Source of the DNA: Closterium sp. NIES-65
Lineage: Eukaryota; Streptophyta; Zygnematophyceae; Desmidiales; Closteriaceae
Length of the DNA: 64,000 nt
Assembly: GCA_948144175.1 (NCBI GenBank)
Contig: CANXME010000897.1
Coordinates: forward strand, 124,001 to 188,000
Direction of reading: 5' to 3'
Both the position numbers and the translations under genes were made by a program. Each line of letters starts with the position of its first letter. The stretch's first letter is position 1. Positions 3,926 through 64,000 of the stretch are shown here, piece by piece. Below the pieces are notes generated by a model. That model was given only the letters and a program-made list of their open reading frames with translations. It had not been told where the DNA came from and made no database searches.

Positions 3926-4325
3926 CGTGTCCGTATGGTTGACATGTCAAGTGAGAGCGCGTCAACCCGAAGCGCATTCAAATTAGAGTGTCAAGCACTG
4001 TAGTGGAAGTGTCAAGTCGAAGCGCAGGTACGAACATCAGCGAAACAATTTCATTGGTTTGAGAATTTGTCATGGCTAGATCTGCTAGGCAACGAACAAT
4101 TCAAAAGACATATTGTGTGCTGATTGGGCAGCATCTGGTCGTGAGATAGGTACCTGCGACAATCTTCTCTCGTTTGTAGGTTTGTCTGTGCCAATTTCAA
4201 AAGTGTCTGACGATTTGTATTGGCTGGCAACCTGCAATTTCTTGACACTCTGCCAACATTGTTGGCAGAGTGTCAAAATGCCAAGTTGACACTGCCCACT
4301 TTGACATGTCATCCCTACGGACACG
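3926..4325. mobile_element. Candidate MITE-like element with 24-bp terminal inverted repeats
   Basis: Positions 3926-3949 and the reverse complement of 4302-4325 match at 22 of 24 bases (core CGTGTCCGTA...TGACATGTCA). They bound a 400-bp AT-rich segment with no open frame of note. I could not see a clean target-site duplication, so the mobile-element reading is tentative. An unrelated inverted repeat is the alternative. Confidence 0.35.
4242..4276. repeat. Perfect 15-bp hairpin
   Basis: TTGACACTCTGCCAA, then the 5-base spacer CATTG, then its exact reverse complement. It lies inside the candidate MITE (3926-4325). No poly-T or gene context suggests a terminator. Confidence 0.7.
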
Positions 4326-5273
4326 ACCTCACTCTCAAACTACAAACTGTTAAAAAGTTTTGCACACTCAACCTGAATGGGGACTCTTTTTGATATAGGT
4401 TTGGTAGCATGGTTACATGAGCTTGTGCTGTACCGTTAGGGTTGTAAATGAAAATTTTACACGCCCTGATTAGTCATCGCCAACATGGCGCCAAGATGGC
4501 GAATGCCAGCATGGCGCTCCTCGCAACATGGATAACAGGCGAATAGAAACAGTCTATTTCAACGTCCACCAACGACTCTCCAAAGCAAGGAGCGAATTGC
4601 CGAATGAAGAACGACACAATGAACGTCACAGCCACAAATTTCTGACGGCCACGTGCCACGGGAAGAACATAATAACTCTCCTGGATAAGCCTCCGTTCCG
4701 AGAATGATGCGCACGTGGCGGTCCGCGTCTGGTTCTTGCTTGCGTTCCAGCTTCAAAAGCGTTCACAGTGCGTAGCAAAAGCGTACAGGTCGCCCATTCC
4801 GACACGAGAAACTGGAACAAGGGTACAGCCTCAACGCTGGGTCGTGTAATTTTGTTTTCTCATGAAGATCTCGTGAATAGGCCTTCGAAAGTTCCATTGG
4901 GATTCCCTTTTCTGAACGACGGGAATCTCCCAGCCCGCACAGCCTCCTAGCAGCCGCACCACACATCTAGAACAGATTCCCTAGAGCTTGGGAGAAATTC
5001 CTGTCAACTCTCTTGCTCACTCCAGTCTCTAGTGCATGTATTTTCTACGTCCAGCGAGCTCCACCTTACCTGCACCTGGCACATCCACTCACACATAGTA
5101 GTCAGCGCGCTTCTTACATTAGAAAATAGTTTGTCCTTCACCTTTCCTTCCGGCGTCTTTTTACGGTATGTATAAAGTGTAAACTATCTCTTTCCGTGAG
5201 CATCACGTAAGCAGATAAAGTGTAAACTATCTCTAAGCTACCACCTATCATAACTCGTTATTATTTCCAGGGC

Positions 5274-18262: not shown

Positions 18263-20359
18263 GTGATTGTGCCGGTTCACGCAATCGACCACGCTCGGCC
18301 AAATAAGGAGGGGACTACGGTAGACAGCCCCATACTGCTTAGTGGGAAAACTGGGACGGACTTAGTTAAAATCTTCAGAGACAGGGGAGCAAGTCACAGC
18401 CTCATCAACACTGCTACAGCACGAAAACTGCGATTGCCACTGGACAGATGTTTACCTGAGATCGACGCACGGCTGGTAGACGGCACGCCGCTGGCAATAC
18501 GAGAACGCGTAGACCGGGTTCGGATTCGATGTGAGGGTAACTTCACGTTTAGCCAGGGAATGCTTGCAACTACCCTCGACGGAACCGACATTTTACTCGG
18601 GCGTGATTGGTTGCGACGACACAATCCGCGAATCGACTGGACGACGGGTGACTGCACCGTGCGAGTGAACGGTAACAACATCGCCCTACCTCGCTGGGGC
18701 TCGCCTGAGTCTTCGTCGGTGCGTGTCAACGCGATCACGATGAAACGCGCCGTAGCGGTAGGAGCTAACGTGTACGCGGTCGACATTCGGGAAGCCGAGG
18801 CAGCAGACAAAGGAGGGGATTTACTGAAACTGCTGGCCGACGTACCGAGTGATCTGGCAGCACTGTTGAAGCAGTACAGCGACATTTTCCCGGACGATTT
18901 ACCGACGGGACTGCCACCTCAGCGACCGCACGACCACAGGATAGAGTTAGAACCGGGGGCGCAGCCAACAGTACAGCGACAGTTCCGACTGACCCAGCCC
19001 GAACTGGACGAACTGAGGAAGCAGCTCGATTACCTGCTCGAGAAGGAGTTCATTCGCCCTAGTTTGTCGCCCTTCGCAGCACCGATACTGTTCACACCGA
19101 AAAAAGACGGGGGATTTCGCATGTGCATAGACTACAAAGCACTGAACAGGGTTACCATCAAATCCCGTTACCCCATCCCGCGAACCGACGAACTGATCGA
19201 CCAACTGCGCACAGCCCGGGTTTTCTCGAAAATTGACCTCCGAGGGGGTTACCACCAGATTCGCGTCAATCCGCCCGACCGCCCTAAGACCGCATTCCGA
19301 ACACGCTACGGATCCTTCGAATACACGGTCATGCCCTTCGGACTGACCAACGCTCCCGCCACTTTTCAAATGACCCTGAACGAAGCTTTCCGCCCGCTCT
19401 TGGATAAGTGCGTCATAGTATACCTGGACGACATACTGATTTACAGCCCCGATAGAGCACAGCACTTACAGGACATCGAAGCAGTTTTTAAAATATTGGG
19501 TGAGAACCGCCTACTAACAAAAGCGTCTAAGTGTGAGTTTTTACAGGACCGCCTGGAATTTTTGGGACACGTTATTTCAACTGCAGGAGTGGAAATAGAC
19601 CCAAAGAAAATTGCGACGATTCAAGCATGGCACGCGCCGACCAACTTGACCGAGTTGCAGAGTTTTTTGGGGTTCGTCAAGTACGTGCGCCGGCTCGTCC
19701 CCGACATGGCGAAGCTGACTGCCCCGCTGACAGACCTGCTGAGGAAGGGGGTTGAGTACACGTGGGGGGAGAAAGAGCAAGCTGCCTTCTCGGCCCTCAA
19801 AAACATTTTGTGCTCACCGCCCGTGCTTCACATCGCAGGCCCACACCGTCCGATCGAGCTCGTCACTGACGCAAGTGACATCGCTGTGGGAGCAGTACTG
19901 TTGCAGGATTTTGGGAACGGCCTCCAGCCAATCGCATATGAGTCCCGCAAGCTGCACCCGCCCGAACGCAACTACCCGATACACGACCGCGAAATGTTGG
20001 CGATCGTGCACGCGTTCAAGGTTTGGCGGTGTTACCTGACTGGCGCCGACGTGACAGTACGGACAGACCGACGTGACAGTACGGATAGACCACCGATCAC
20101 TACACTACTTACGCGCCCAACCGAATCTCAATCCACGACAGATTCGCTGGTTGGACTACCTCGAGCCCATCTTCCACTATACGATTACGTACAAGAAAGG
20201 CGCATCCAACATCGCCGACGCACTCACCCGCCCTACCGCCCAACTCCACGCCATCCTACTCGCCCAGACCAACCCGCTTTTAACAAGCCTATTCACCCAC
20301 AGATACCGCACCGACCCATTTTTCACGACTGGAAACTCACAGCAGCTGGCAGAAGCTAA
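18263..20359 (+). pseudogene. Protease, reverse transcriptase and RNase H of gypsy-1
   Basis: This 698-codon frame begins with a retropepsin-like region whose active-site triplet reads D-R-G (residues 40-42) where the family has D-S/T-G. Reverse transcriptase follows, with the catalytic YLDD at residues 397-400, then RNase H with LVTDASD (D536) and E577. At 20048-20091 a 22-bp tandem duplication throws the frame, so the last about 90 codons are out of register and the true continuation is at 20092-20516. Retrotransposon replication enzyme; non-functional copy. Confidence 0.9.
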
Positions 20360-20580
20360 AGGGGTTTATTACGTAAAAACAGGCACCAACCGCATCAGGG
20401 TACCCGCGTACTCACTACTGAGGGAGCTGCTACTGCAGGAGGCACACGACGGAACTACCTCGGGACATTTTGGGGTAGAAAAAACGCGACAGCAACTGCA
20501 GCGGTATTACTACTAGCCGGAGCTGTTGACCGACGTGTAGCAGCACGTGGGCTCGTGCCCCACGTGTCAGGTGATGAAGA
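20073..20580 (+). pseudogene. RNase H end and integrase zinc-binding region of gypsy-1
   Basis: This frame resumes the RNase H C-terminus (RTD/RID HRSLHYL, ADALTRP) and enters the integrase HHCC domain (HDGTTSGHFGVEKTR). Two in-frame TAG codons at 20514-20516 and 20538-20540 stand where the family normally has Trp or another residue. The second half of the zinc motif (CPTCQ) follows, and the nested element then interrupts at 20581. Confidence 0.85.
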
Positions 20581-20756
20581 TGTGAGAAGAGTGGATAGAG
20601 TTAGGAGCCATAGCTAGGTAAGTCCTAGGTAGGCAAGTGAAAGTTTAGGCAAAGAGGGGTTTCACTAGCAGCAATGAGGATACATGTAGCAAACCCTAGA
20701 TGGGTTGTACTCGCTATATATCACCCCACTACAGGCTAGAGAATAACATTCTGACA
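20581..20756 (-). repeat. 3' LTR of the nested element
   Basis: 176 bp, TGTGAGAAG to TTCTGACA. The TSD GAAGA lies directly to its left. Confidence 0.9.
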
Positions 20757-21419
20757 CACCCCCATAGCCAAAGTGGGGTGTAATCAGTACAATGAGCAAG
20801 CAGGTATAGAGCAGGAGTTCACAAAGGTAAGAAAAGCTAGAGCTAATCACAGAGGGCAAGTGAGGAGGAAGAGAGACTGTGGAGGAGAGAAGATGGGAGG
20901 CGACTGCTGAAGCTGCAGACACACAGGAGCTGCTGGCTCAGTGGCTACCGAAGCAAAGGCCCAGACTACAGGAGTAACTCGCTCCGCGGAGATTGCAGCC
21001 TCTAGACCGGAGCAACAGACCCACAGGCGACTGGCGACTACCGGAGATTGTAGCCTCCGGACTGCTGGTGCTGCTAGCGACAAGACTGCTGCCTCCACTC
21101 AACCTCCCCCAACTGCCCAACGCCCCTCTCACACACCCCCTGCTCAAACCCTAGCTCCACTCCCACAGCACCCCCCTTAAACCCTAAACCCCAGACTCCC
21201 ACACATCCACCCCCCTCAGCGACAGCTGCAGCAGTGGGAGACAAAGGAGGAGGAGGAGAAGGGGACGGCGCGCACAACCGACACCCCCACAACCATCACC
21301 CCCACACTCTTACCCCCAAAACCCTAAAACGGGTGGGATAGGGGCAGGAGCGCGGGGGATGGTGAGGGGGGGACAGCGCGAGACCCCCAGGGCGCCAGAA
21401 CGGACGGGCTGGGCGGGTG

Positions 21420-21860
21420 GAGGGGGGTGGCGCGCGCTGCTCCCCAGGGCGCCGCGACGGACGGGCAGGAGGGACGCGCGCGCGGCTCTCCAGGGCGCCG
21501 CGACGGCCTGACGGGGCGCGCGCAGGTTCTCAAGGGCGCCGCGACGAACACGCGAGGCGCGCGCGGGCTCCTCAGGACGTCGCGACGAACGGGCGGGGCG
21601 CTCACGGGCTCCCCAGTGCGTCGCGAGAGACAGGTGGGGCGCTCGCGGGCTCCCTAGGGCGTCGCGAGGGACGGGCGGGGCGCTCACGGGCTCCCCAGGA
21701 CGCCGCGACGGACAAGCGGGGCGCGCGCGGGCTCCCCCACGGCAGGAAACCGCCGCGCGCCTCGGGGCGCACGGCGGGCAGAAAACCGCCGCGCGCCCCG
21801 AGCGCGCGGCGGGATGAAAAATTGGAGGTCGCGCGCCACGGGGCGCGCGACACATAGTAG
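21420..21860 (-). repeat. GC-rich leader array of the nested element
   Basis: Imperfect repeats of CAGGGCGCCGCGACGGACGGG type precede the primer site in minus orientation. They are comparable to the leaders at 1-434, 2510-2880 and 53100-53660. Confidence 0.7.
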
Positions 21861-21936
21861 GGCAGCGGAAGTAGTAGTAGGGCCGCGGAAGCAGTAGTAG
21901 GGCCCACAGGCCGGGAGCGTGAGTGCTCTGAAACCA

Positions 21937-22112
21937 TGTGAGAAGAGTGGATAGAGTTAGGATTCATAGCTAGGTAAGTCCTAAGTAGGCAAGTGAAAGT
22001 TTAGGCAAAGAGGGGTTTTACTAGCAGCAATGAGGATACATATAGCAAACCCTAGATGGGTTGTACTCGCTATAGAGCACCCCACTACAGGCTAGAGAAT
22101 AACATTCTGACA
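21937..22112 (-). repeat. 5' LTR of the nested element
   Basis: 176 bp. The primer site is directly left (21925-21936) and the TSD GAAGA directly right. Confidence 0.9.
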
Positions 22113-23249
22113 GAAGAGCTCGAGGAAGCAGAAGGCGGGTCAATTGCAACCGATACCACCGCCCGAGCGCGCCTGGCAGCAGGTCACCATAGACTTCGTC
22201 ACAGGGTTACCTTCGAACCCTGGGGGTAACGACGCGGTGATGGTCGTCGTTGACAGGTTGACGAAGATGGCACACTTCACTGCGTGCAAAAAGTCGATCT
22301 CAGCCGATGAAATCGCTCGTCTGTTCATCGCAGCCGTTGTTCGCCTGCACGGGATACCAGCAGCAATTATCAGCGACAGGGACACGAAGTTCACCAGCAA
22401 CTTCTGGAAGAACCTCTGGGAGCAGTTCGGACCAGGCTACAGTTCAGTTCGTCGTACCACCCCGAGACCGATGGTCAAACGGAGCGGACGAATCAGACGA
22501 TGGAGCAGTTGATTCGTGCCACGTGCGACGATCCCACGACCTGGGAGCAGCAGCTGCCACTGATCGAGTTCGCGTACAATAATGCCACATCAGCGACAAT
22601 GCAGCAGTCCCCCTTCTACCTGAACTACGCGCAAAACCCTACAGTGCCCATGACGCCGAGTCCGGACAACCCAACACCACGTGCACAGCAATTCACCGAA
22701 ATTCTGCAAGCTGCCCGCACCAGAGCCGCAGAAGCAATTACAAAAGCAAACGACATCGGTAAGCGCAACGCTGACCGCCACCGCCGCCCAGTCACATACC
22801 AGTCAGGGGATTACGTACTACTCGACACGCAAAATCTGCGACTGCCCGACGTACCAAAACTCCGACCGCGCTACTGTGGCCCATTCCAAATCAGCCACAT
22901 GATCACGCCAGTAACCGCGCACCTATTGTTACCGACCGACTGGTACATCAGCCCTTCGTTCCACGTCAGCTTGCTTCGCCCCTACATCCCAACCACAAGC
23001 CAACTGCCTCGCCACCGCCCGCCATCCATGACTCGCCTTGCATCGGAGCCGATCATCGCGCCTGAAAAAATCCTGAGCCATCGGATTCGACACCCCACGG
23101 GAATCAAGAGGATTGAATTCCTCGTTCGCTGGAAGGATCGCACGCCAACTGAGGACAGTTGGGTGCCTCTGGCCAACATCGAAAACCACCCTGCCCTGCA
23201 AGTGTACCTGAGGAGCCAGGGATTCCGCGATATACACGCACTCGCGTAG
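22113..23249 (+). pseudogene. Integrase core and chromodomain of gypsy-1 (frameshifted)
   Basis: The integrase catalytic core resumes after the nested element: TIDFVTGLP (first Asp) and SDRDTKFTS (second Asp) in the frame 22144-22512. The segment carrying the final Glu and NQT motif is in another frame, which continues from 22500 to the stop at 23247-23249. The C-terminal about 50 residues (IEFLVRWKDRTPTEDSWVP) form a chromodomain, the targeting module of chromoviruses. At least one indel near 22440-22500 breaks the protein. Confidence 0.88.
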
Positions 23250-47365: not shown

Positions 47366-48783
47366 AAGTAGCGCAATACCCTCTTTGCAGCATCCCAGTG
47401 CACCTTTCGGTGACGACCAGGAGCCACGTAGCGAGCCAGAAGGCCAAGAGGGTATGCTAGGTCAGGACGAGTGCAAGTCATCAGGTACATGAGGCAACCA
47501 ACTAGCTCTGGGTAAGGACCACTCGACTCTACGGACTCATCCGAAGGCAGAGCTGAGAGCGAGTGACCTATAGCCAGAGGAGTGGCCTGTGCTGAGGACC
47601 AGGTGAAACCGAAGCGCTGAAGGACCCCCTGCACCATGTGTGACTGAGTCAGGGTAATGGTGCGGCGTGCTCTGTCCCGGGTGATCTGCAAGCCAAGGTA
47701 GCTGCGCAGCTCAGCCAGGTCTGTGCACGTGTGTCTCTTCTGCAGCTCCGACTTCACGTGGGCGAGAGACTCAATGTCAGCTGTGGCAAAGACCAAGTCG
47801 TCGTCGTACACGAGGATGTAGAACGGCGGCAGCGAGGTGTCGGTGCGTAGAAACAGCGACGGGTCAGCAGTAGAAGGAGAGAACCCAAGTGCCGCAAGAG
47901 TAGTCCTCAGTGTGTCGTGCCACTCACGTGGCGCCTGGCGGAGATCGTAGACCGGCCGGCGGAGGCTCCACTGGGTACCACGAGGGAACGACCCAGTGAA
48001 GCCAGGAGGGCGGCGCAGCCTGATCTGCTTGTGCAGACTGCCCTGCAAGAAAGCTGTGCTGAAGTCAAGAGAGTGAAGCTTGTAGTCGCGCTGAGCAGCA
48101 ACGTGCAGTAGTACCCGAAGAGTGGTCATCTTCGGGGTGGGGGAGAAGGTCTGGAAGAAGTCTACTCCCTCTCGCTGACTGAAGCCTCGAGCAACGTAAC
48201 GAGCCTTGAAGACAGGCGGAGAACCCGGCGGCCGCTTCACCCTGAAAATCCACATGCCACTGACGATGTTCGCCCCAGGTGGGGGAACCTCGTCGATGTA
48301 GGTTCCTGTGGACTTCGAGGAAGCCATCTCTGTGTCCATGGCTGACTGCCACTGTGAGGAGTAGGGACCCTCGATCGCCTCAGCGTACGATCGAGGAGTC
48401 GGGATGTCTGGTGCATCCGGGTCTCCCTCAGGGGTAACTAGCATGGACACGAGATGGGGCGCAGCGGCTGCAAGACACTCAAGATCCTCCTGTCTGTCCT
48501 CAAGGACGTCCGTGATAAGAGCACACGCACCCCCGACAGACGGAGGACAGACAAACTCAGACTCAGCGACAAGTCTGGCAGCGTAGTCTAGACGACAGCG
48601 AGCAGCTAAGTCGACAAGCTCAGCAACTAGGGCACACGCAGCAGCAGACTCAAAGGAAGGGTCAGTGACAGCAGTGGCCAGGAGACGCGTGACAATAGGA
48701 CTGGCATCACGATGAGAGTCAGACTCAGGGTCAGCAAGAGTAGGAAGAGAGGACTCAGGAGGAGACGGCAGAGGGACACACTA
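47113..48783 (-). pseudogene. Reverse transcriptase of the Copia element
   Basis: The RVT_2-type domain reads, from Met at 48450: WIFRVKR, KARYVARGFSQREGVDF, LDFSTAFLQG (D129) and the catalytic block VYDDDLVFA (residues 214-222). The frame upstream of 48450 is open to a TAG at 48781-48783, which separates it from the integrase in the same frame. The last about 80 codons are shifted out of the RNase H frame. Confidence 0.92.
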
Positions 48784-50916
48784 TGGAGCAGTGGAGGGAC
48801 GCAGTGACATCCGGTGTGTGCCAGGGACTGGTGGCGGACGCTCACGCGGAGTACGGCGACTGGTGGAAGTAGTACGAGCAGGGGACTCAGGACGGGACAC
48901 AGGCGACACAGGGCGAGACTCAGGCTGACGACGCTCTGTGAGACCGCCTGTAGGACCAGTGTAGGGAGAAGGACGAGGAAGTGGCGAGGCAGGCGGTAGC
49001 TCTGACTGCGACTGGACCGGCGGTGGACACTCTACAGAGGGAGGGGGACAAGGCGGAGGTGATTGACCAAGAACCTGCTGAAGGAGTGGAACAAAGTACG
49101 GCCGCGGCCGTGAGGTGCCCCCTGCAGCAGCAGAGAGAGCACTTGAACCTCCAGCAGCTCCAGCAGCACCCCCAGCACCTCCAACGCCCGGGTCTGCAGC
49201 ACCAGCAGCAGCTCCAACGCCCGGGTCCACAGCACAAGTAGCAGCTCCAACTCCAGGGTCCGCAGCACCAGTAGCAACCCCAACTCCAGGGTCCGTAGCA
49301 CCAGCAGCAGCTCCAACGCCCGGGTCCGCAGCACCAGCAGCAGCTCCAACGCCCGGGTCCGCAGCACCAGTAGCAACCCCAACTCCAGGGTCCGCAGCAC
49401 CAGCAGCAGCTCCAACGCCCGGGTCCGCAGCACCAGCAGCAGCTCCAACTCCAGGGTCCGCAGCACCAGTAGCAGGGTCCGCGACACTAGGAGCGCCACT
49501 CCTGAGACTACAGCGTCGTGCGTACCACTCACGAAGACGCTGGGGAGAGGGCAGCTCCCGCTTAGGCGAGGAAGCACGAGCACCAGCTCCAGCAGCACCC
49601 CTAGCTCCAGAAGCGCCTCTCCTGAGGCTGCAGTACTGTAAGTACCACTCACGCAGCTGCTGTGAGGAGAGAGCTCCTCCAGGCGTAGCACTCCCAGGCT
49701 CAGCACCCCCAGACTCAGCACAAGTAGGCTCTGTACTCCCAGGCTCAGCACCCCCAGACTCCGCACCCCCAAGCTCAGTACCCCCAGACTCTGCACCCCC
49801 AGGCTCAGCACCCCCAGTCTCCGCAACCCCAGGCTCCGCACGCTCAGGCTCAGCACCCCGAGCAGGACGAGAGTCGACAGCTACCTCGACAGGCTCAACC
49901 GGGTCTACCTGGGACACACCTGAGGGAGCGGCACCCTGAGGGGGGAGGGGGTCTACCACAACAGCACCTGGCGCGAGGAAGAGAGGCGGGGGAGGGAGCG
50001 GGGCAGTGCGGTAGGGGAAGAGGCGGTAGAAGGGTACCGACTCGTCAAAGGTGACGTCCTGAGAGGCGAGGACACGGCGCGAGGTGGGGTGGTAAAACTG
50101 CCAACCAGACGCGTCCGGAACAAAGCCTAGGAAGACACACGGAACAGCGCGGGAGGAGAGCTTGTCCGCGGACGTATCGCGAACAAAAGCTCGGGATCCC
50201 CAGACCCGAAAACGCGACGCATCGCCAACCTCTCCCGTCCAACGCAGTGTCGGGGAGGTCTCCGGCAAGGAGACACGGGGCCAGAGGTTGAGCTGATGCG
50301 CAGCGTATCGGAGCGCAAATGGCCACAGAATGTGGGGAGCAGCCGCATGGATCAAGGAGGTACGAGCAACCTCCATGACCAAGCCAATGCGGCGCTCAGC
50401 AACCCCATTCTGTTGTGGAGAGGCCGGAAGCGTGAACGACTGGCGGATGCCGTGCTCCGCACAGTAGGCTGCCAAGAGGTCGGAAGAGAACTCACCACCT
50501 CTGTCAGAGTGCAAGCGCAGGACAGGAAATTCCGAGTGGAAATGCTCGCTGAGCTGAAGACGAGAAGCGCGGATCCAAGGGATCAAAACATCAGGGACCT
50601 CACCCTTGGTGCGCAAGGGGAAGACCGTGGTGTAGCGCGGGTAGTCGTCAACAACTATCAGAAAGTACCTCTCCTGACCCTGACCACGGACGCGGGCGGG
50701 GCGCCACACGTCCATGTGGAGCGTCTGCAAGGGAGCAGTCGTCGGGGGAAACGAGGAGGAGTGAGGAGCAGCGCGCTGCCGCCCCTCGACACAGGGAAGG
50801 CTGGGAGGAGCAGGCGAGGGTGGGAGGGGAGGGAGAACCCTGGGAAGACGAGAGACAAGGTACCGTTTGTGCATTGCCCGAAGGCGCTGCACGGACGGGT
50901 GACAAAGTCGGTGGTG
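48784..50916 (-). pseudogene. Integrase and linker of the Copia element
   Basis: The integrase core shows MDVW (D61), LHSDRGGEF (D130) and SPQQNGVAE (E166), counted from Met at 50892. The GAG-pre-integrase motif HHRLCHPS just upstream follows a TAG at 50917-50919 that replaces the expected codon. After the core, an Ala/Gly/Pro-rich linker contains 33-bp tandem units encoding GAADPGVGAAA (about 49180-49480). It ends at a TAG (48781-48783). Confidence 0.92.
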
Positions 50917-51525
50917 CTAGAGGACTGTCTCGTGCGTCAGAAAGCGGCACGAGCAGGGGGCCGACAGCTGACGTGAAGCAGACGCAGACGCAGCTACCTG
51001 AGGGGACTCAGTAGTCAGTGTGTACAGGTCCGACCCCGGCTGCCGTGTGAAGGTTGCCAGGTGACGGCCCGTCCGAGCACACGTGCAGTGTGTCACGCGC
51101 TCGTAGACAGGGGTGAACTGGTGGACACCTCTGTCCTGGAGCGCACTACCCGCCACCAAGTTCGTAGAGAACGAGGGGAGGTAGAGACCGGAAAGATTGC
51201 CCGACGGGACGGCCGGACAGGGGAGGACAGTGGAGGAGGTCGCAAGGACTGGATCCCCAGAGGGGTCAGCGAGAGAGACTGCAACGGGCCGAGCAAGCTG
51301 CTCAAGAGCCGTGCAGTCACGAAAGAAACAGCGGGAGGCACCTGAGTCTAGTGTAAAGGTGTGCAGTGCCTCAGTCGACTCAGTACCAGAGGGCGCAGAC
51401 GCACCAGCACCTAGAGAAGCAGCCTCACCAGCACCTGGGGTAGTAGACACTCTAGCACCTAGAGCGGTAGCCTCACCGGGTCGAATGCCCGGGTCGGGCA
51501 GAACACGCAGGTACTGGGCACCCTA
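50917..51525 (-). pseudogene. Protease region of the Copia element
   Basis: Minus frame with the retropepsin active site LDSGASRCFF and downstream conserved hydrophobic patches (SGLYLPSFSTNLVAGS). It is bounded by in-frame TAG codons at 51523-51525 and 50917-50919 and shares the frame of integrase and reverse transcriptase. The original product was probably one Gag-Pol polyprotein. Confidence 0.88.
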
Positions 51526-52849
51526 TCCACTAATAGACATCACATACATGGCAGAGAGAATAGCATCAAAGTCTAGAGCAAAGATATCAATGTTTCGCTT
51601 CATCAGATCAGCCCAGAAGGGCAGCTCAGTGGCGTTAGGGAACTGAGTACGCCAAGCGTCGTCGAGGCGTGAGAAGCAGCGCTGCGTGGGGTGCGCCCTC
51701 CCATACGTCTGACCAGTGCGGTCACCAGTGCGGATGACGTACGTGTAGCTAAGGCCACCCCACCCCCCCCCCCGTGCTGAGCGTACCACTCACGGAGCTC
51801 CTGGGGCGACGGAGAGTGCTGCAGGCTCTGGCCACCGCCAGTGCCTCCACGACCACCACCGCCGCCGCCACCTCCTCGACCACCTCCTCCCCTGCTGCCG
51901 CCGCGTCCACCGCCGCCCCCACCACCGCCCCCGCCCCTGCCACCGCCCCCGCCGCTGCCGCCACCACCCCCACCGCTGCCACTAGCCCCACCAGTCTCCT
52001 CACCACCCCCACCGCCGCCACCACCCCCACCACCGCCTCCCCCGCCGTCACCTCCGCCTCCCTTGCCCCCTTTGCCCTTGCCGCTGCGGCGCCCGCTCGA
52101 GGCAGACGTAGCCCCGAGCTTCTCAGAACCAAGGAGGTCGACAGCAGAAGCAGAGGCTACAGAGGGAAGAAGGTGGCAAGGGAACACCCCTCAAAGAAAG
52201 GGGTGCGGGAGTCGCCACGAGAGGCACCTACAGCGACTATGCTAGCCTCAGCTGCAAGCAGTTCCTTCTCGAGGAGGGCAATGGTGAGCTCAGTAGGGCA
52301 GCGAGCTAGGAAGTGATCCCTGACAGCACGCAGAGTGTCAGGGAGGCGAGTGACTAGGTGGTAGAGAGTGAGCCAGAGCGGGGGAGGGTTCTTCGCAAGA
52401 AACTCATCGGGCATGGCGGCACGGAAGCGGGCCTCACTAGTACGGAGGTGCGTGATGAGGTCAGCGACTGTGTGGAACGAGGCCAGGTCGGGAAACAGGT
52501 AGGGGAGTAAGAGACGGCCTAGCGCGGCAGAGGCAGGTGAGGAGTAGCGGGCAACGATAGCGGTGTACAGTGCCTGTGCAGTCTTGTGCTGGCCAAAGTG
52601 CTCGCGCTCGTCTATCGGCAGGGAGTTGCGAATAGCGAAGCGAGCGTGGGCGTCACGAGTCTGCCACTGTGAGCGGGCAGTGCTGTCAGCACTAGCAGCA
52701 GGAGCAGTAGCATGGCCTAGGGCGTGATCGTACAGTGAGATGTCCTTCTTGGCAGTGAGCTGTAGGAAGAGGTGTAGGTCATCTAGCCAGGTATCGAACT
52801 TCACTGGGCGGCCCTCAGCATCGAAAGCTAGCACAGGAGGGCTAGCCAT
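51523..52849 (-). pseudogene. gag of the Copia element (frameshifted)
   Basis: The Copia-type gag begins MASPPVLAFDAEGRPVKFDTW at 52849 and includes helical capsid sequence (LYDHALGHAT, HKTAQALYTAI, FHTVADLITHLR). After about 52190 the reading moves to another frame encoding a glycine-rich, basic segment (GKGKGGKGGGGDGG) and then to a third frame after a C/G homopolymer near 51766. No intact CCHC knuckle is visible. The indels make it non-functional. Confidence 0.88.
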
Positions 52850-54749: not shown

Positions 54750-55217
54750 GTGTCCGTCGATGATGGCTTGTCACATGCCGCGACTTTATCTACAAACGAT
54801 GTCGATAATAGTAACATGAGTGATGCAACTTTTAGTTCAAACAAGATGACAACCTCATCTTCAAGCATAATCTTGGAAAGTGAGGGAGTTGTTCGTAAAT
54901 TTGAGAAGCCGTATCGTTTTCTTAAGTTGAACATTAACGACGATGGCAATTGTTTGTACCGAAGTATGTCCATGTGCCTTTACGATACACAAAGCAGATA
55001 TGAAGAAGTTAAACTTGCAGTGTTGCACTATGTTGTTTCTAATTGGGCTAATACCGATTATAAGTACCCTGATCAGGCAAGTGTGGCACATGGTCGCGTT
55101 TTTAGATCCGCCGACAAATATTTTTTTTGTGTTTCACCTGATCGTGTTTGGGGGTCCATCAATGAGGTGCATGCTTTTTCCAAAGTGTTCAATATTACCT
55201 CAACTATTTGGCTAGGT
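54750..55217 (+). pseudogene. OTU-domain cysteine protease-like copy 2, truncated
   Basis: A second copy about 720 bases downstream of the first is very similar in protein and DNA. It retains DGNCLYRSMS and SNWAN but ends at TIWLG (55217), where gypsy sequence begins. The catalytic His segment is lost. The open frame runs on into antisense retrotransposon sequence to 55331, which is not meaningful coding. Confidence 0.78.
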
Positions 55218-56115
55218 GCCCTAACCTCGGCCAGCCCCACCCAGGCGTCTTCCGAGCTCACTGTGACCACATCGGTCAGTACCCGTGGCGCGTCTATGGG
55301 CAAGATAGGCTCTCTTCCCAGCAGCAGGTAGTACAGCGAGAAGTCCTTTAACGCCGCCTGCTTCTGAAGCGGTAGCCTGCGACCACCCACGGGAGTCTCG
55401 TGTCCCAGTCCCTCTTGAATTGTTCCCCGTAAGCTCTCAACCCTCTCTTCACAGTCTGCACAAACCGCTCCGTGAGCCCGTCGCTCTGCGGGTGATACCT
55501 TGAGGTCCGCCGATGAGTAATACTGCTGGTTTTCAGTAGCTTCTCGAATTCTCCCAAGAATTCCGTGCCCTGATCTGTCAATACTTCCCCACATGCTCCG
55601 AAGCGAGTCAACACTTGATCCTCAAATGCCTCAGCGATCCGGGCCGAGCTCTTGCTCGGCAGCGCCTTCACCTCCACCCACTTACTGCCGTGCTCGATCA
55701 TGATGAGTATGAACCGCTTCCCCCTTCGACTGAGCGGCATTTCTCCGGCCAGGTCTAATGACCACCGGAACCCTAGGCCTCTGATAGGCAGCGAGTGCAG
55801 CTCTTCCCTCCCTCTCTCCATCTCTGCTTTGTTCCTGCTGCATAGTTCGCAGGAGCCCACCCACTCTTTAATGTCTCCTCTCATTCCGGCCCACCACCAG
55901 CCCGTCTCTATTAACTGGCTCGTCCGTAGGCTGCCATAGCGCCCAAGCTGCCGATGCACCTTCGCTATGATCTCTTCCCGCTCCTCTCGCCTCGGGACCA
56001 GCTTCCATCCTTTGTGTTTTTCTGAAGCTGATCCTGGAACCACCGGTAATGCAGGCCCCTGGCTCTGGCCCTCTTGCTTGCAGGTTCTGCTTCCAAGGTC
56101 TTTCCTTGGATCCAC
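55218..56115 (-). pseudogene. Integrase of gypsy-2
   Basis: The zinc-binding HHCC region (VHRQLGRYGSLRTSQLI, SCELCSRNK) precedes a DDE core: WSLDLAGEMP, LTDQGTEFLG and YHPQSDGLTERFVQ. Near 55370 the frame shifts and the C-terminal segment (LYYLLLGREPILP) continues in another frame until it is cut at 55218. No chromodomain is seen. Confidence 0.88.
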
Positions 56116-57074
56116 CTCAGAGTCTCTTCATCCTCCCAGACGTCTTCGGCTCCCTTCTGAGCTTTCCGTTTGGCTCCTTCCCCATCGATTTCTCTTGCCA
56201 ATGCCACTAGGCACGCCTCTGGGCTCGAGGGTGGCGGGTTGCGCGATAGCCCGTCCACATGCTGCAATGTCTTCCCCGCTCGGTGGCGAATAGTGAACTC
56301 ATATTCCTGCAGCCGCATGGCCCATCGAGCGTTCCAGCCTGTCAGGGCCTGGTTGGTCATCAGCCACGTCAGCGGCTGATGATCTGTAACTAACACGAAC
56401 GGCCTCCCCTGTAGGTACACTCGGAAGTGGGTGATAGCCCAAACTGCTGCGAGCCCTTCCCCTTCGTATGAGCTATAATTGGCTTCTGCAGGGTTACAGC
56501 TTCGGCTCGCAAAGGCCACCACCATCTCTTGTCCGTCCCTCTCCTGGCATAGAATCCCACCCATGCCTGCGCTACTCCAGTCGGTGTAGAGTACGGACGG
56601 GTCCTCCTTACTGGGCAGGGTAAGGACGGTCCCTGTCTTCACCGCCTTGAGGAGGGCTTTGAATGCCCCCTGTTCTTCCTCTCCCCATTGCCACGCCTGG
56701 TCCTCTCGCAGTAACCTGTTCAGTACCGAGGCGGTGCGGCTGAAATTGGGTACAAACTTCCTGTAGTAGTTCAGGAAGCCCAATACCGCCCTCAGTGTAC
56801 TGCGGTCCTTAGGAGCGGGGACTCGATCCAGCACCTCCACTTTCGCCTGCTGGATGCTCAGTTGCCCCCCTTGTACTTCGAAGCCCAAGTACTTCACTGT
56901 GCTGTTCCCGAAGCCGCATTTCTTCGGGTGGCATGTCAGCCCTGCTGATCGAATGGCGTCCAATGTGTCGCTCACGTCCTTCACGTGCTGCTCTGCGGAG
57001 GCACTGAACACGACTACGTCGTCGATGTAGCAGGCTGCCGCTGGCACGTGCCTCAGCACGGAGTCCATCACCCG
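55965..57074 (-). pseudogene. Reverse transcriptase end and RNase H of gypsy-2
   Basis: In frame with the upstream polyprotein but after its TAG. Contains YIDDVVVFS (catalytic Asp pair), the connection domain (LGFLNYYRKFVPNFS), and RNase H with LYTDWSSAGMGG, SYEGEGLAAVWA and LVTDHQPLTWL. It ends with HVDGLSRNPP and a spacer in which the frame is lost before integrase. Confidence 0.9.
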
Positions 57075-60000
57075 CTAAAATAGTGCTGGCGCGTTCTTCA
57101 TGCCGAAGGGCATGAACTTCCCCTCATACAGCCCGTCGGGCCCATGAAAGGCCGTTTTCTTCCGGTCCTCCTCCTTGATCGGTATTTGATTAAATCCCTG
57201 CCGGAGGTCCAGCGTGCTAAACACCACTGCTCCTTGCAGCTGATCGAATATCTCTTCCGCCGATTGCATGGGGTACCTGTCCGCCACCGTCACTTTATTA
57301 AGCCCTCGGTAGTCCCCACACATTCTCCTGGCTGATACCTCTCCAGTGAGATCCTTCCGCGCCGCTACCACTGTCGCCGTTGCGTAATCACTGTCAGAAA
57401 TATGGATGAGGCCTGCCGCTAACAGCTCCGCACACTTCTCCCGGCAGATGTCCAAGTCGCCTGGGCTCATTCTCCGTTTCCTTATGTATATAGGCATCTC
57501 CGTATTCAGCTTCACCTGCATTTGATGAGAGTTGCATTGCCCCAGTTCGGCTAAGGTGTAGGCGAACGTCTTGCGGTGCTGCTTCAGCACTTCCTGTAGT
57601 ACCTGTGCTGCCTCTGCCCCCATTCCGGAGCCTATGGGCCAGGCGTCCTCTGGTCCCCTCTCCTGGCTTGGCTTTTCCGTCATAACTCTATTCTCCCCGT
57701 CTGGCGGCAGTACTCCTTGGTCCGTAGACCTGCTCCCTGCTTCCACGGCCATGTAGGCCCATCCTTCCAAGATACGAGCTTCCTGTTGCTCCTCTATGGC
57801 TCTCAGTTGGCGTTTCCGCTCCTCCGTCTCCTCCTCCTCCTGGTACAGCTCACTGACTTCAATGCCACGTTGGAGCTTTTTCCTCTTTAGGTGCATGCGA
57901 ATGGTCTCCACCAGCCACGCCATGACGTTCAGGTCCATGGCTCTACCCAGCGCTGCCCTCCTTTGCGGCTCCGTCACTCGGGGGTGGGCGGTAGCTCCCG
58001 GCTGATGCCCCATGGCTAACTCCCGCTCCTCGGCCGTTGGTTGCTCCCACCTTTTTCCGATGACGTCGTAGATCATTCCGGGCCCGGGCAAGTCTCCCTC
58101 CATCACGAATCCGTAGGCGTCCACGTAGGACACGAGTGTCGGCAGCGCCTCTCTCGGCTTCCTAGGCACATTACACTGGTACTGGGACGGGTGGTCTGGC
58201 ACAGTGACCGGCGTTGGCAGACGGTTGGGGCCCAGAATGTCACTAACCAGTCTCGGTTCCGGCCGCTGCATCTGAGCCAGAGAGTGGCGTAAACTTGCTT
58301 CTGAGATCCCGTTCTGCCAGTACCTCCTGGGTCGGTGCGCTCTGAACCCCAGCTGCGCCGCGTCAACCGCTTGCCCCCTGCCGACAGCGGCTTCTAATTC
58401 GGTGAACGCCCTGCGCACGTGCTCCCTGCGATCGTCAGCAAAGTCCACGTTCTCCAGGATGTAGAGCACTTCTCCCTGCTTCGCCTGGACCATCTCCAGT
58501 ACCCGCTTTAAGTCCCTGAAAGAGGCCCCGCGAATGTCTTCCATTCCCATCCCCTCTCCAGCCCGAGAATAACCCTGACATTCCCATCCCGCCACAATGA
58601 CGTCAATCTGCCCCCACATCTCGAGTGTCTCCTCCGAGATATCCCTGACATCGTCCACCACCTCCTCATGTTCAGCGGGTAGGGCGGATTCGGCCAGCTG
58701 ATCAGGATATTCAGCTAGCAGCCGCCGGGCGTGATGCTTAGCCATCCGGCGCACCACTGGATCTCTCTCGACGTGAATCCACTTCCGCACCCTGCAACCA
58801 GCTCGCAACACCGCTGCCAATCCAGTGCCGATGCCGCCGTACAGCTCCATGATGCACACTGCTCCTTCTAAGGTCCAGAGCCGGGTCACTCTTTCTTTCA
58901 GCGAGGTCGGTTCTCGCCCTTGCCTCCTCCTCTCTATTCGTCGTTCGTACTCCTCCGCGTATCTCTCCCAGCTCCAGTCGTCCAGCACTGGTCCCAGGTC
59001 AGCAGCCCGCGCTCCGTAAGCTTCTCGAGGCTCTTGCTTAACGAACTTCACGGGCATAGTACCCACGGAGCTTGCAGCGTCCCAGTAGTGCACGCGGTAC
59101 AGCACTTTCTCCTGCCAGGTACAAATGGTGGCGCCAACTCGGTAAAGCAAATCCATGCCCACTAGCGCATCATAATCCTCGGACTCTGACACGCCACAAG
59201 TCACGCGGATGCAGCATTCTTTGTCTGTGCCGGGAAGCAGTACTATCTCGATGGGTCTTACTGTCCGCGGCATCCATTTTGGCTCCCCTCCCTCGGCGGT
59301 CATGAGCAGGATGCCCCTTGGCACGAGCCTCCCGGGCATGTCTAGCTTCAGTTGCCTCGCTAGTCCCTTCCCGATCAACACGTGGTGAGCCCCAGTGTCA
59401 ATGATCGCTTGCCCCACTAGCAACCCACCCACCGTCATGCTCCCCTTTTTGGCTATCAGGACGGAGGCCTGGCACACGAGTCTCTCGTTAGGGTGGCGCC
59501 TCAGTTCGGAGGTACTGCTTCCCTCATGCACGTTGCCGCGTGGCTCACGCACTCTGCTCGTACGGCTCTCGGACGACTGGCTCCCTCGGAGCCGAAGATC
59601 GAGGTCCTCTCTCTCCCTTGGGAACGCCATAAAGCCGCTGGCTCGCAAATACTCGCCCTCGCCTTCTTCCTCCCCCTCGACCTCCTCGTATGCCAGCATA
59701 GCTCGGGCTTTCGGCTCCACTTTAGGCTTCGCCTCCAATCGCAGTTGTAACCGTTTAATCTCTGCCTGTAGCTCTTCTTTACTGGGGGTCTCCTCGGAGC
59801 GGCGCCGGCTATAGCATGCGTCGTCCTTGTGCCCCTTCCGTCCACAGTTCCCACACACTGGCAGCTTCGGGCAATCTCGCTTCAAATGGCCCACTTCCCC
59901 ACATTCGTGACACCGCCGTGCGTCGGCCCGCTGTAGTCCACCGAGAGGCGACTCCGCCAGCGCCGCCGCCGCCCATGAAGACTTCGTTTTAGGACGCACT

Positions 60001-61265
60001 TCCCCGCCTTCCAAGTCCAACATCCTCTGCGCGTGCTCCGTCCTTTTAGCCAATCCGTAGACGTCCTTCAGAGTAATATCTGCACCCATGCCGTACACTG
60101 TGTTCCGCACCACATTCCGCAGATCTTCATCTAAGCCTCGGACGAACTTGCGCACCAGTAGCCGTTCGTCTCGGCTTTCTAGATCATCCGCAAGCTCCCT
60201 CAGTCGGCAGTAGTAGGCTAGCAAGGACTCGTCTTTTCCTCGGCGAAACTCGCGGAATTCCTCGACTCTCGCTTTAGTTTGCCCCAGAAATTCCTTCTTC
60301 CGCAGCTCGACAAACCGCACGGTCGGGTTTCCGATCTCTCCGCACGCCAGCTCCTCAAGCACTTCGTCTCGCGTCATGCGATAAAAGGTCTCGGCCTCGC
60401 CCGCTAGCGTTACTACCATCCGCCGGAAGAATTCTGCCGGGTCCAGCCCGTCCCGTTCCCAACAGTAATGCACCGTCTCCAACTGCATCAGATAGTTCTT
60501 CAGGGTGGGACCCACGCCGGGAATTCCGGTGAACCGCTCGGCTACCTCCAGCTTCGGCAGGGATCCTGTCTGCCATCTCTTGTCGGTAGACCGGTCTGGT
60601 GGGGCGGCTGTTGAGGGTAGCTCCGCAGCTCGACTCGCTATAATCTCTCGATGCATCGGCGACCGGAAATCTCCCTCCGGCTGGCGCCGCAGCCAAGTCG
60701 TCTGTGCCCGCACTCGGTCGGATTCCATCCCCGGCATCAACCCAGGGGAGTTACTAGCTGGGCGGCTCGCCCACCGTGCTCTCGCTTCCTGAGCCCAGCG
60801 CGGATCGTGAGGTGTCTCTCCTGGATCCGACGCGACGGTCCGCGAAGGCTCCATATCCTCGCGCCGCCCTCGTTCCCGTTGGTGCGGGGTCCGGTACGCT
60901 CCGGTAGTCGGAGCTGGCGAGCGCCTTGTCTCCACCGCTGACACTCGGTCCAAAGAGGTTGTCGCAGCGGCGCGCCAGCTTGGTTCAGCTGAAATATCTT
61001 CTTTTCGGTAGCTCTGCCCCGATCGTAGTCTAAACCTATCATTCATCCTAGCTTGAGAACAGCGATCGGTCGCAGTCCTTGCTTGTATGTTGCGTGCTCC
61101 TTGCTCCTTGGACTCTCTCTGGGTCTTCCTAACTCGGCTGACTGCCGGAAAGCAATGAGTGGAAACCCTCAAAAGGCTTGCTGGGATTGGCTCCTCCCCT
61201 TTGCGCAAATACGAGTATGGTTGTAGGTAGCTCTTAGCTGATAGAGGAAACATACAAGCAAGCAA
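57075..61265 (-). pseudogene. Gag-protease-DNA methyltransferase-reverse transcriptase polyprotein
   Basis: A single 1396-codon frame. Residues about 235-420 are the gag capsid. Two CCHC knuckles follow (452-465 CHECGEVGHLKRDC; 471-484 CGNCGRKGHKDDAC). A retropepsin has IIDTGAHHV (Asp623). Residues about 795-1125 are a cytosine-5 DNA methyltransferase (separate entry). Reverse transcriptase begins at about 1250, with SARRMCGDYRGLNKV, STLDLRQGFNQIP and the MPFGMKNAPALF block at the very end. A TAG at 57075-57077 then stops it; the frame continues beyond the stop with the catalytic YIDD. The family normally has Gln at this place, so CAG to TAG is likely. The true start may be a later Met such as residue 74. 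Confidence 0.9.
57902..58880 (-). other. Cytosine-5 DNA methyltransferase domain within Gag-Pol
   Basis: The domain transfers a methyl group from S-adenosylmethionine to cytosine C5. Motifs seen in canonical order, residues of the Gag-Pol frame: I MELYGGIGTG (806-815, SAM binding), II VERDP (832-836), IV GWECQGYS (893-900, with catalytic Cys896), VI LENV (937-940), VIII HRPRRYW (977-983), then a variable target-recognition stretch (about 985-1074), IX-like QPTAEERELAMGHQPG (1075-1090) and X-like LGRAMDLNVMAWLV (1106-1119). Motif IV has Glu-Cys where most family members have Pro-Cys. The domain is complete and free of stops, and lies between protease and reverse transcriptase. Confidence 0.9.
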
Positions 61266-61454
61266 ATGATACTGCTCGTGTTGCTTGCCTAAGTATGTGC
61301 ACTTGGTTACCGTTGCACGGCAACGGTTGGTTTTGTTCCGTCAGTTCCCGATTTGGCGCTATTCGCCTCTGCCTCACCCCGCTTGAATACTACTCACTAC
61401 GGTACCCTGTCATGCATTTATATTGATATGCCCTACTCACTATTCTTCAATTAA
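61266..61454. other. Short spacer between gypsy-2 and the interrupted gene
   Basis: It contains an 8-bp hairpin (61309-61316 with 61320-61327). It could hold the promoter of the plus-strand gene or the remnant of a gypsy-2 leader. No LTR was recognised. Confidence 0.4.
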
Positions 61455-61523
61455 ATGTATGACAAAGTCGAGAAGCCAACATATCCTGCGAAGCTGTTTC
61501 TACTTGACTCTGAGGGTGTTGTA

Positions 61524-61664
61524 TGTCAGTAGATCTACACTGTGGATGCCCGATTGATCCTGGAGAGGGTTACAGGCGCGTTCGCCTGGGGGGTTATGGG
61601 CGCACTGACCCGCTACTGAAACAAGCCCTTTTATCCCAATGGTCTAGTGGTTGGGATTCTGACA
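61524..61664 (+). repeat. Solo LTR of a TRIM
   Basis: 141-bp LTR (TGTCAGTAG to ATTCTGACA) with perfect target duplication TTGTA at 61519-61523 and 61665-61669. There is no internal region or partner LTR, so it is a solo LTR left by recombination. Confidence 0.92.
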
Positions 61665-61725
61665 TTGTAATGGAGCTGATTTTTTTGGCTGAGACCCGAT
61701 GTGCATTCCCGTGGACTCTAGAGAA

Positions 61726-62102
61726 TGTCAGTAGAGCTACACTGTGAGATCCCCGATCGATCCTAGGGAGGGTTACAGGCGCGTTTGCCTGGGGGGTTAT
61801 GGGCGCACTGACCCGCTACTGAAACAAGCCCTTTTATCCCAATGGTCTAGTGGTTGGGATTCTGACATGGTATCAGAGCGGTCTCGGGTTCGATTCCCTG
61901 TGTATGCACATGTAGGCCGTTGCCGCTGTGCTTAGTCCTGGGCCTCCCAGTGTGGGGGGGTGTCAGTAGAGCTACACTGTGAGATCCCCGATCGATCCCA
62001 GGGAGGGTTACAGGCGCGTTTGCCTGGGGGGTTATGGGCGCACTGACCCGCTACTGAAACAAGCCCTTTTATCCCAATGGTCTAGTGGTTGGGATTCTAA
62101 CA
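61726..62102 (+). mobile_element. Complete 377-bp TRIM retrotransposon
   Basis: Two 142-bp LTRs (61726-61867, 61961-62102) flank a 93-base interior with primer site TGGTATCAGAGC (61868-61879) and polypurine tract TGTGGGGGGG (61951-61960). A perfect target duplication GAGAA flanks it (61721-61725, 62103-62107). No protein is encoded. The two LTRs are almost identical. It is among the smallest possible complete LTR elements and must be moved in trans. Confidence 0.95.
61836..61905 (+). promoter_or_regulatory. tRNA-like A-box and B-box across LTR and primer site of the TRIM
   Basis: TGGTCTAGTGG (61843-61853) matches a Pol III A box and GGTTCGATTCC (61887-61897) matches a B box. They start 44 bases apart, as in a tRNA gene. 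The acceptor stem does not pair, so this is not a tRNA gene. The B box lies in sequence beside the primer site and may partly reflect complementarity to the primer tRNA. Confidence 0.5.
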
Positions 62103-63345: not shown

Positions 63346-63608
63346 TTCCAGATCTCCTTTCTCATTCATACCTTTTACATTCTTTTTTCTCCCCCCAAAT
63401 CCGTTATATAGGTGCCGTCGTTCATTGTGGAGCTTTCTGTTGCAAGGATGGACTTAAACTATTTTCCACGAGCTGTATGCAGAGTGCGTGATGGGAGTGG
63501 CACCTTTAGCTTGACCACGCTGGGCTCGCTTGCAAACGGTACCAAAATGATCGTGGCAGAGGAGCAGATGATCACGAACACGCTTTTCAATGAAACGAAA
63601 GTTGTCCT

Positions 63609-64000
63609 TGTCAGAACATTATAGCTTACTTATTTGTGTAGGCTATAGTGGGGTATCCCATAGGGGGTACAACCCAATTAGGGTTTCATATTTGTACTCA
63701 CTTCATTCATAGTTCATTCATTCTCGTTCACTTCTTCTCATGGTATCGAGCAGGTTCCCCTGTGGGACCTGTGCTTAGGGCCCACCACCTCGAAACGTCT
63801 TTTTTTTTCTGCCCTAGCCGCTAGCGCACCGCCCGCCCTCGAACGTGAGCGCCGCCCCTAGCGCCCTAGCGCCCGTCCGCTGCCTGCTCTAGCGCTAGCC
63901 GCCCGACGCGCCGCCCACAGCGCTGCCCGACGCGCTGCCCTAGCGCCGCCCTAGCGCCGCTCGACGCGCCAGCCTAGCGCCGCCCGACGCGCTGCCCGAC
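63609..64000 (+). mobile_element. 5' end of a plus-strand Copia-like element
   Basis: A 132-bp LTR (63609-63740, TGTCAGAAC to CTTCTTCTCA) is followed by primer site TGGTATCGAGC (63741-63751) and a GC-rich leader of CTAGCGCCGCC units up to the window end. The LTR matches, in reverse, that of element B (3263-3390). It interrupts an exon. The other LTR, the target duplication and the coding region lie outside the window. Confidence 0.85.

What the first reader, a model, noticed from the sequence alone, without database searches (positions are those of the whole stretch)
57902..58880. A Ty3/gypsy Gag-Pol polyprotein contains a complete cytosine-5 DNA methyltransferase
Motifs I, IV, VI, VIII and X-like of a C5 methyltransferase are in order inside one uninterrupted frame with two gag zinc knuckles and retropepsin on one side and reverse transcriptase on the other. 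The element could methylate its own cDNA or the integration site, or recruit host silencing. From memory, such fusions have been reported in charophyte and dinoflagellate retrotransposons, so the class is probably known, but this member and its placement between protease and reverse transcriptase deserve study.
Basis: partly seen in the sequence, partly recalled or inferred. Interest (0 to 1): 0.92.

Follow-up and report, generated by a model that had tools for sequence, protein, structure and literature searches.

The report
Retrotransposon carrying its own DNA methyltransferase
A jumping gene in a green-algal genome (probably the desmid Closterium) encodes, in one frame with its gag, protease and the start of its reverse transcriptase, a DNMT3-like DNA methyltransferase domain that would likely mark the element's own freshly copied DNA; such elements are already known, but this one has a glutamate where the proline beside the catalytic cysteine normally sits.

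The parts
55217..61464 (-). the retrotransposon copy; left terminus TGTC at 61464, 3' end missing beyond 55217
   Evidence: 98.1% identical over 6253 columns to own-genome copy L085, which goes on ~609 bases further
57075..61265 (-). gag-PR-DNMT-partial RT open frame, 1396 codons; stop codon 57075-57077 lies inside RT
59793..60578 (-). Gag-like region
   Evidence: tblastn of polyproteins P0004 and P0014
59814..59912 (-). two CCHC zinc knuckles
   Evidence: PF00098 23.4 bits for the first; second CX2CX4HX4C read by eye
59061..59465 (-). retropepsin (DTG within 59405-59376)
   Evidence: PF13975 and PF13650 below cut-off; blast matches to this stretch of 48-67% in 20 own-genome copies and 96-98% in L085 and L086
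57906..58886 (-). DNMT3-like cytosine-5 methyltransferase domain
58566..58589 (-). motif IV GWECQGYS: catalytic Cys kept, preceding Pro replaced by Glu
58440..58463 (-). motif VI YILENVDF (ENV Glu)
   Evidence: Glu in 150 of 150 proteins readable there
58323..58361 (-). motif VIII, ...AHRPRR, DNMT3-type AHRxR
57078..57413 (-). reverse transcriptase, N-terminal part in the long frame
   Evidence: PF00078 47.9 bits
55965..57071 (-). rest of RT and RNase H in a second frame
   Evidence: PF00078 42.1 bits, PF17917 114.1 bits
55217..56010 (-). integrase (H2C2 and rve), frame-broken and cut at the 3' end
   Evidence: PF17921 50.2, PF00665 37.1 bits

Best explanation
The window holds a broken, 3'-truncated copy of a multi-copy Ty3/gypsy-like retrotransposon whose Gag-Pol polyprotein has a full DNMT3-like cytosine-5 methyltransferase domain between protease and reverse transcriptase, and this domain is predicted to methylate the element's own new cDNA before or as it integrates. 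Shown: the domain, its place, its kept catalytic Cys and Glu, its DNMT3-like profile and predicted fold, purifying selection in the few copy pairs that can be measured, and recent movement of sister copies. Inferred: that protease frees the domain or leaves it beside RT in the particle, that it takes double-stranded cDNA as substrate, that CG is its site, and that the mark helps the element, most plausibly by making new copies look like already methylated host DNA and so escape recognition or damage. The Glu next to the catalytic Cys is fixed in the copies read and is predicted to tune, not abolish, activity.
For: PF00145 above cut-off in one frame with zinc knuckle and RT. A profile of 13 sequences hits DNMT3A at E 6.5e-24, ahead of DRM 2.8e-13 and HhaI 5.8e-11; the fold of the whole domain is DNMT3-like. 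20 of 20 own-genome copies, picked for long frames, keep GAG-PR-DNMT-RT/RH-INT and show no stop in the aligned DNMT and RT stretches. Ka/Ks 0.08-0.10 (DNMT) and 0.11-0.12 (RT) in the two copy pairs with Ks between 0.05 and 2 in both domains (L057/L068 and L058/L068, which share a copy; 91 pairs of 14 sequences compared). Catalytic Cys in 145 of 145 and ENV Glu in 150 of 150 proteins readable there, the window's included. A repeats 97.3-99.8% identical in 14 copies. Differences between the repeats of a copy are commoner at CG sites (26 of 726 against 82 of 9579; transitions 20 against 45; Fisher p 2e-8 and 1e-8; 14 copies), as expected if integrated copies are CG-methylated by the element or the host. 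Published relatives: two SymbioDIRS-Dnmt3 enzymes methylate CG de novo in yeast (PMC5890265).
Against: No activity was measured here. The Pro before the catalytic Cys, present in DNMT3A and in the eight phage enzymes read, is Glu. The closest published analogue, KnitGypsy-Dnmt3, showed no activity in yeast, called inconclusive by its authors. Elements are not CpG-depleted: mean observed/expected 0.76 against 0.77 in their flanks (16 copies), 0.86 in the window copy against 0.78 for the window. Not all copies keep the domain intact: among the ten nearest in DNA, the window's included, two have a gap in it and two of the other eight a stop; of eight other 3.2-kb loci three show it frame-shifted or in part (L047, L049, L053). 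Among those eight gap-free domains Ka/Ks is higher (ratio of means 0.31; 1.11 for the window and its nearest copy), as for decay after insertion. The selection estimate rests on few pairs. The CG-site excess cannot tell self- from host methylation, and counting a site as CG when either copy has CG inflates it somewhat.
Confidence: 0.55

Rival explanations
1. The domain is a self-restraint device: it methylates integrated copies or target sites so that host silencing keeps the element's copy number tolerable.
For: CG-site excess of differences between repeats; a slowing of retrotransposition is named as a possibility by de Mendoza et al..
Against: The family is abundant and has young copies (about 160 methylase places as a lower bound; A repeats 97.3-99.8% identical), which is not what strong restraint gives; CpG is not depleted.
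Confidence: 0.18
2. The domain has lost or changed catalysis (Glu for Pro beside the nucleophile) and is kept for binding nucleic acid or for polyprotein assembly, or acts on RNA or RNA-DNA hybrid.
For: Glu in 68 of 145 proteins readable there and in 20 of 20 own-genome copies; Pro/Glu changes 7 and 6 times on the two trees; yeast test of the KnitGypsy enzyme negative though inconclusive.
Against: Catalytic Cys, ENV Glu and the AHRxR arginines are invariant or nearly so, which a mere binding domain would not need.
Confidence: 0.2
3. A chance fusion or assembly artefact: a host methyltransferase gene fragment fell into this one copy.
For: The window copy itself is broken and truncated.
Against: 20 of 20 copies on 20 contigs (two of them one duplicated site) have the same order, most with repeats and target duplications; 39 other places match the domain's DNA; homologous polyproteins exist in other species.
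Confidence: 0.01

Closest known systems
KnitGypsy-Dnmt3 of Klebsormidium nitens (de Mendoza et al. 2018, PMC5890265; main text parts 1-4 of 7 and search passages read)
   Same: Gypsy-type polyprotein with a DNMT3-type domain in pol; kept catalytic residues; purifying selection; repeats described as arranged like those of DIRS (Fig. 4 legend)
   Different: No hit of mine bore its name, so homology, motif IV state and exact position could not be compared; its ends and target duplications are not given in the text read
SymbioDIRS-Dnmt3 of Symbiodinium (same paper)
   Same: DNMT3 in pol, A-coding-B-A-B repeats, presumed cDNA methylation; two copies active on CG in yeast
   Different: Tyrosine recombinase instead of an rve integrase; the paper places DIRS far from Gypsy elements
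Chlorophyte and metagenome polyproteins RNaseH-DNMT-integrase, often with PHD (Scenedesmus P0084, Haematococcus P0138 and P0153, Monoraphidium P0141, Chromochloris P0148; the last genus name recalled from the code Chrzof)
   Same: Homologous DNMT (33-40% to the window's in six of them), sister RT clade
   Different: DNMT lies after RNase H, not after protease; PHD behind the integrase, in P0028 also a sub-threshold Tudor match
Vertebrate DNMT3A/3B
   Same: Fold, motif order, AHRxR motif VIII
   Different: No PWWP or ADD found by Pfam in this polyprotein; SPCN instead of WECQ; about 19-20% identity in the structural alignment

Membership tests
C5 cytosine DNA methyltransferase (PF00145) | Profile match above curated cut-off | tested here: met
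   33.5 bits against 22
C5 cytosine DNA methyltransferase (PF00145) | Motif I glycine loop, catalytic Cys of motif IV, ENV of motif VI, arginines of motif VIII | tested here: met
C5 cytosine DNA methyltransferase (PF00145) | Pro immediately before the catalytic Cys (usual in the family, recalled); because it is absent I file the domain as a C5-methyltransferase-like variant | tested here: not met
   Glu in the window and in 20 of 20 copies; 72 Pro, 68 Glu, 5 others among 145 readable proteins
C5 cytosine DNA methyltransferase (PF00145) | Methylates cytosine | not testable with these tools
   Needs an assay
DNMT3 family | Closer to DNMT3 than to DRM, DNMT2 or bacterial enzymes by profile and fold | tested here: met
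DNMT3 family | Unrearranged motif order I-IV-VI-VIII-X, unlike DRM | tested here: met
DNMT3 family | Groups inside DNMT3 with host plant and algal DNMT3 genes | not tested
   Only one DNMT3A row and phage enzymes as outgroup; no host green DNMT3 was retrieved
Ty3/gypsy LTR retrotransposon | Order PR-RT-RNaseH-integrase | tested here: met
Ty3/gypsy LTR retrotransposon | Two identical terminal repeats bounding the insertion; because this fails I call the element Ty3/gypsy-like | tested here: not met
   13 of 20 copies have A-ORF-B-A-B and the insertion ends after the second B; four are single units
Ty3/gypsy LTR retrotransposon | Short target-site duplication | tested here: met
   Exact 4 bp or more in 16 of 17 copies with both ends located; not visible in the truncated window copy
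KnitGypsy-Dnmt3 | DNMT3 in a Gypsy pol with DIRS-like repeats | tested here: met
   Own-genome copies, against the legend of Fig. 4; the window's own subfamily copies L085 and L086 have no such repeats
KnitGypsy-Dnmt3 | Sequence homology to the K. nitens element | not tested
   No K. nitens sequence was returned by name
DIRS (tyrosine recombinase) retrotransposon | Tyrosine recombinase and no target duplication | tested here: not met
   rve integrase and 4-bp duplications

The most novel reading that the evidence does not exclude
A DNMT3 offshoot that lives only in green-lineage retroelements has been kept through deep time in two different slots of the polyprotein, has repeatedly swapped the proline beside its catalytic cysteine for glutamate, and works on a circular, split-repeat cDNA intermediate. 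Methyltransferases would then recur in elements with split direct repeats (DIRS and these gypsies) because that intermediate needs marking, and the Glu enzyme would be a new substrate variant of the C5 methyltransferase reaction.
Probability: 0.15. Interest if true: 0.85.

Novelty: new variant of a known kind. Interest (0 to 1): 0.6.

Why it matters
Retrotransposons are usually the target of DNA methylation, so one that carries a methyltransferase-like domain under selection is a handle on why a parasite would methylate itself. This family has many and young copies in an alga of a group close to land plants, with relatives in a liverwort and in chlorophytes, and it offers a natural experiment: about half of the proteins seen have Glu, half Pro, beside the catalytic cysteine. 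Its ends (TGTC...GACA, 4-bp duplication) together with split direct repeats also pose a concrete replication puzzle.

Tried and rejected
Phage origin: tblastn in phages gave 90 records, at most 28% identity in the 20 rows listed. Eight were read: all have Pro before the Cys, and motif VIII is AQNRxR in seven and FRRNR in one, not AHRxR. Pattern scans that allowed Glu or Pro in motif IV gave 16 viral and 22 prokaryote loci confirmed by tblastn. In the 32 whose motif IV my script read it was Pro, in 6 it was not read. One of the 32, L025, is itself a gag-PR-DNMT-RT-integrase element in a contig filed under a cyanobacterial MAG, probably contamination.

DNMT-less members: 104 RT places were scored of 13454 candidates. 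30 of 104 have a DNMT place within 3.5 kb upstream in my lists; 74 are undecided because those lists (163 entries, 160 distinct places, the window's included) are lower bounds. Twelve of the 74 have stop-free frames over 2000 codons, long enough to hold the domain, but they were not read. So I do not claim that no member lacks it. Nor were the ~160 places all read; some could be host genes or duplicated contigs.

CpG depletion as a footprint of self-methylation: none. LTRs of the window copy: none found by comparing its two sides; its subfamily copies L085 and L086 show no long terminal repeats. By eye L086 has a 4-bp duplication; in L085 3 of 4 bases agree. L085's DNMT frame is broken near its end.

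Single origin of the domain in both architectures: RT trees put the two architectures in separate clades, but architecture A is not one clade in the best DNMT tree (one clade in 6% of bootstraps), and only two RT outgroups were used. One capture plus relocation and two captures stay open. Rows dropped: 16 of 61; 4 A and 10 B rows of 49.

Not done: Klebsormidium comparison, second AlphaFold job.

Full report
WHAT IS THERE. The minus-strand frame at 57075-61265 encodes 1396 residues. Pfam finds a zinc knuckle (23.4 bits), C-5 DNA methylase (33.5 bits, cut-off 22, residues 865-947) and reverse transcriptase (47.9 bits) in it, with sub-threshold retropepsin matches. A second CCHC knuckle and the DTG of the protease are read by eye. 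RT continues with RNase H in the next frame (55965-57071) after a stop at 57075-57077, and H2C2/rve integrase follows with more frame breaks. The copy matches own-genome copy L085 at 98.1% from its terminus TGTC at 61464 to 55217, while L085 goes on for about 609 bases. So the window copy is 3'-truncated and broken in RT, with the gag-PR-DNMT part still open.

HOST. The nearest proteins are 'unnamed protein product' or 'hypothetical protein' of Closterium sp. NIES-53, NIES-54 and NIES-68 (best 73% over the full domain), later also Naga37s-1. The genome holds 874 Mb in 2400 contigs. That it is a Closterium is inferred.

THE ODD RESIDUE. Motif IV is GWECQG. In 154 proteins (the window's and those listed; one search listed 120 of 159 hits) the catalytic Cys is kept in 145 of 145 with a letter there; the residue before it is Pro in 72, Glu in 68 and something else in 5, and Pro and Glu occur in both architectures. 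All 20 own-genome copies have Glu. Pro/Glu needs 7 changes on the quick tree and 6 on the careful one with that column left out, where many branches are weak. Both states lie inside the well supported B clade (100/99) and outside it, so more than one change is needed. DNMT3A and the phage rows have Pro. That Pro is the rule in C5 methyltransferases at large is recalled knowledge.

TWO ARCHITECTURES. Of 197 proteins (the window's and 196 found), all with the domain, 25 have it before RT, 102 after RT, and 70 show no RT; none of the 125 with an integrase has it behind the integrase. 'A' (PR-DNMT-RT) holds Closterium and Marchantia proteins, though in some of the latter protease or RT was not detected. 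'B' (RNaseH-DNMT-integrase, often PHD) includes named chlorophytes: Scenedesmus, Haematococcus, Monoraphidium, and Chromochloris by its code; of B only P0028 was scanned by me in full. RT trees separate A and B: 98 and 98 on 13 A and 34 B rows (quick), 100/99 and 96/97 on 9 A and 24 B rows (careful, bootstrap not settled), with Ty3 and a second gypsy from the window outside. In the DNMT tree B is one clade and A is not clearly one. The retro-DNMTs stand apart from DNMT3A and phage enzymes (100/99), but with a long-branch warning and no host green DNMT3 in the tree.

COPIES. PF00145 scored 123 places in the genome, 123 over the cut-off (902 candidates). The window domain's DNA scored 40 places, itself included (284 candidates; the others 89-98%). 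Together 160 distinct places, a lower bound; most were not read, and a few may be host genes or duplicated contigs. I read 20 ten-kilobase copies, chosen from the 123 for long open frames. 20 of 20 have GAG, PR, DNMT, RT/RNaseH and INT in that order, and none has a stop in the aligned DNMT or RT stretch. Nine have one frame over 2130 codons that spans these domains. This choice favours intact copies. Elsewhere decay is plain: of eight 3.2-kb loci three have the domain frame-shifted or in part, and of the ten nearest copies two have a gap and two a stop in it.

SELECTION. Of 91 pairs (14 of 21 sequences), only two have Ks between 0.05 and 2 in both domains, and they share one copy: Ka/Ks 0.08-0.10 for DNMT, 0.11-0.12 for RT. 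Deep pairs have saturated Ks, with DNMT Ka/Ks at most 0.27 in the 45 pairs printed. Very young pairs range higher (0.18-0.47 where defined; 1.11 for the window and its nearest copy), as for decay after insertion. So purifying selection is supported, on few informative pairs.

REPEATS AND ENDS. 13 of 20 copies have both repeat pairs in the order A-ORF-B-A-B (for example L068: A 1121-1679 and 8318-8876, B 8062-8316 and 8877-9131). L059 and L060 show one pair, L063, L064, L066 and L072 are single A-ORF-B units, and L069 is arranged otherwise. The inner B-A joint reads GACA-gc-TGTC in seven copies printed, like joined ends of a circle. Insertions run from TGTC to GACA with an exact duplication of at least 4 bp in 16 of 17 copies with both ends located; L072 has none, and L055/L056 share flanks and are one site. 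Both split-repeat and single-unit copies carry it. This joins a DIRS-like repeat plan to integrase-type insertion. A1/A2 identity is 97.3-99.8% in 14 copies, so some members moved recently. The window's subfamily (L085, L086) shows only the single unit.

METHYLATION TRACES. In 14 copies the repeats differ at 26 of 726 CG-context positions and 82 of 9579 others (Fisher p 2e-8). CpG observed/expected is 0.76 in elements and 0.77 in flanks (16 copies). This fits CG methylation of integrated copies with little long-term depletion; it cannot say who methylates.

MECHANISM. The likeliest reading is the one de Mendoza et al. proposed for their elements: the enzyme travels with RT and methylates cDNA. 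Shown are presence, place, some constraint and mobility; activity, substrate and benefit are inferred.

NOVELTY. The class is published: de Mendoza et al. 2018 (PMC5890265, parts 1-4 of 7 and search passages read) describe Klebsormidium gypsy elements with DNMT3 and DIRS-like repeats. A 2025 paper (PMC12344493, passages read) cites it. Passages of PMC8226300, PMC10407611 and PMC9289625 said nothing of DNMT-bearing elements. In the rows listed by eight searches of the open-licence library (at most 20 rows each, often of hundreds) I saw no paper on DNMT-bearing gypsy elements in Closterium, Marchantia or chlorophytes, nor on the Glu variant; subscription papers are not covered. New here, as far as those listings go: the Closterium family, the two architectures and their spread, the Glu, and the 4-bp duplications.

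Noticed in passing
window 48781-52849, minus: Copia-type element remains: integrase and retroviral SH3 domains in 48781-50892 and gag-like frames beyond it (by eye).
   Followed up: partly
window 18941-22660, plus: A second Ty3/gypsy element, RT about 35% identical to the DNMT family; the polyproteins searched found no DNMT match beside it; grouped with Ty3 in the RT tree.
   Followed up: partly
window 54750-55331, plus: OTU-like cysteine protease frame (27.1 bits, cut-off 23.3) whose end runs into the truncated 3' end of the element.
   Followed up: partly
window 61523-62102: Three direct repeat copies (83-94% identical) close to the element's left end, with a TGGTATCAGAGC-like stretch.
   Followed up: no
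L025 (contig of a cyanobacterial MAG), 87-5978: Gag-PR-DNMT-RT-integrase element with GWPCQG motif; probably algal or plant DNA in the MAG.
   Followed up: partly
L055-L074: Split direct repeats with integrase-type ends and 4-bp target duplications; single-unit copies also occur.
   Followed up: yes
P0028 and relatives: P0028 carries PHD and a sub-threshold Tudor match behind the integrase, and many B proteins a precomputed PHD: a possible chromatin-targeting tail.
   Followed up: no
window 63608-63790: Short stretch repeated at 78-86% in loci L060, L061 and L062, another repeat family.
   Followed up: no
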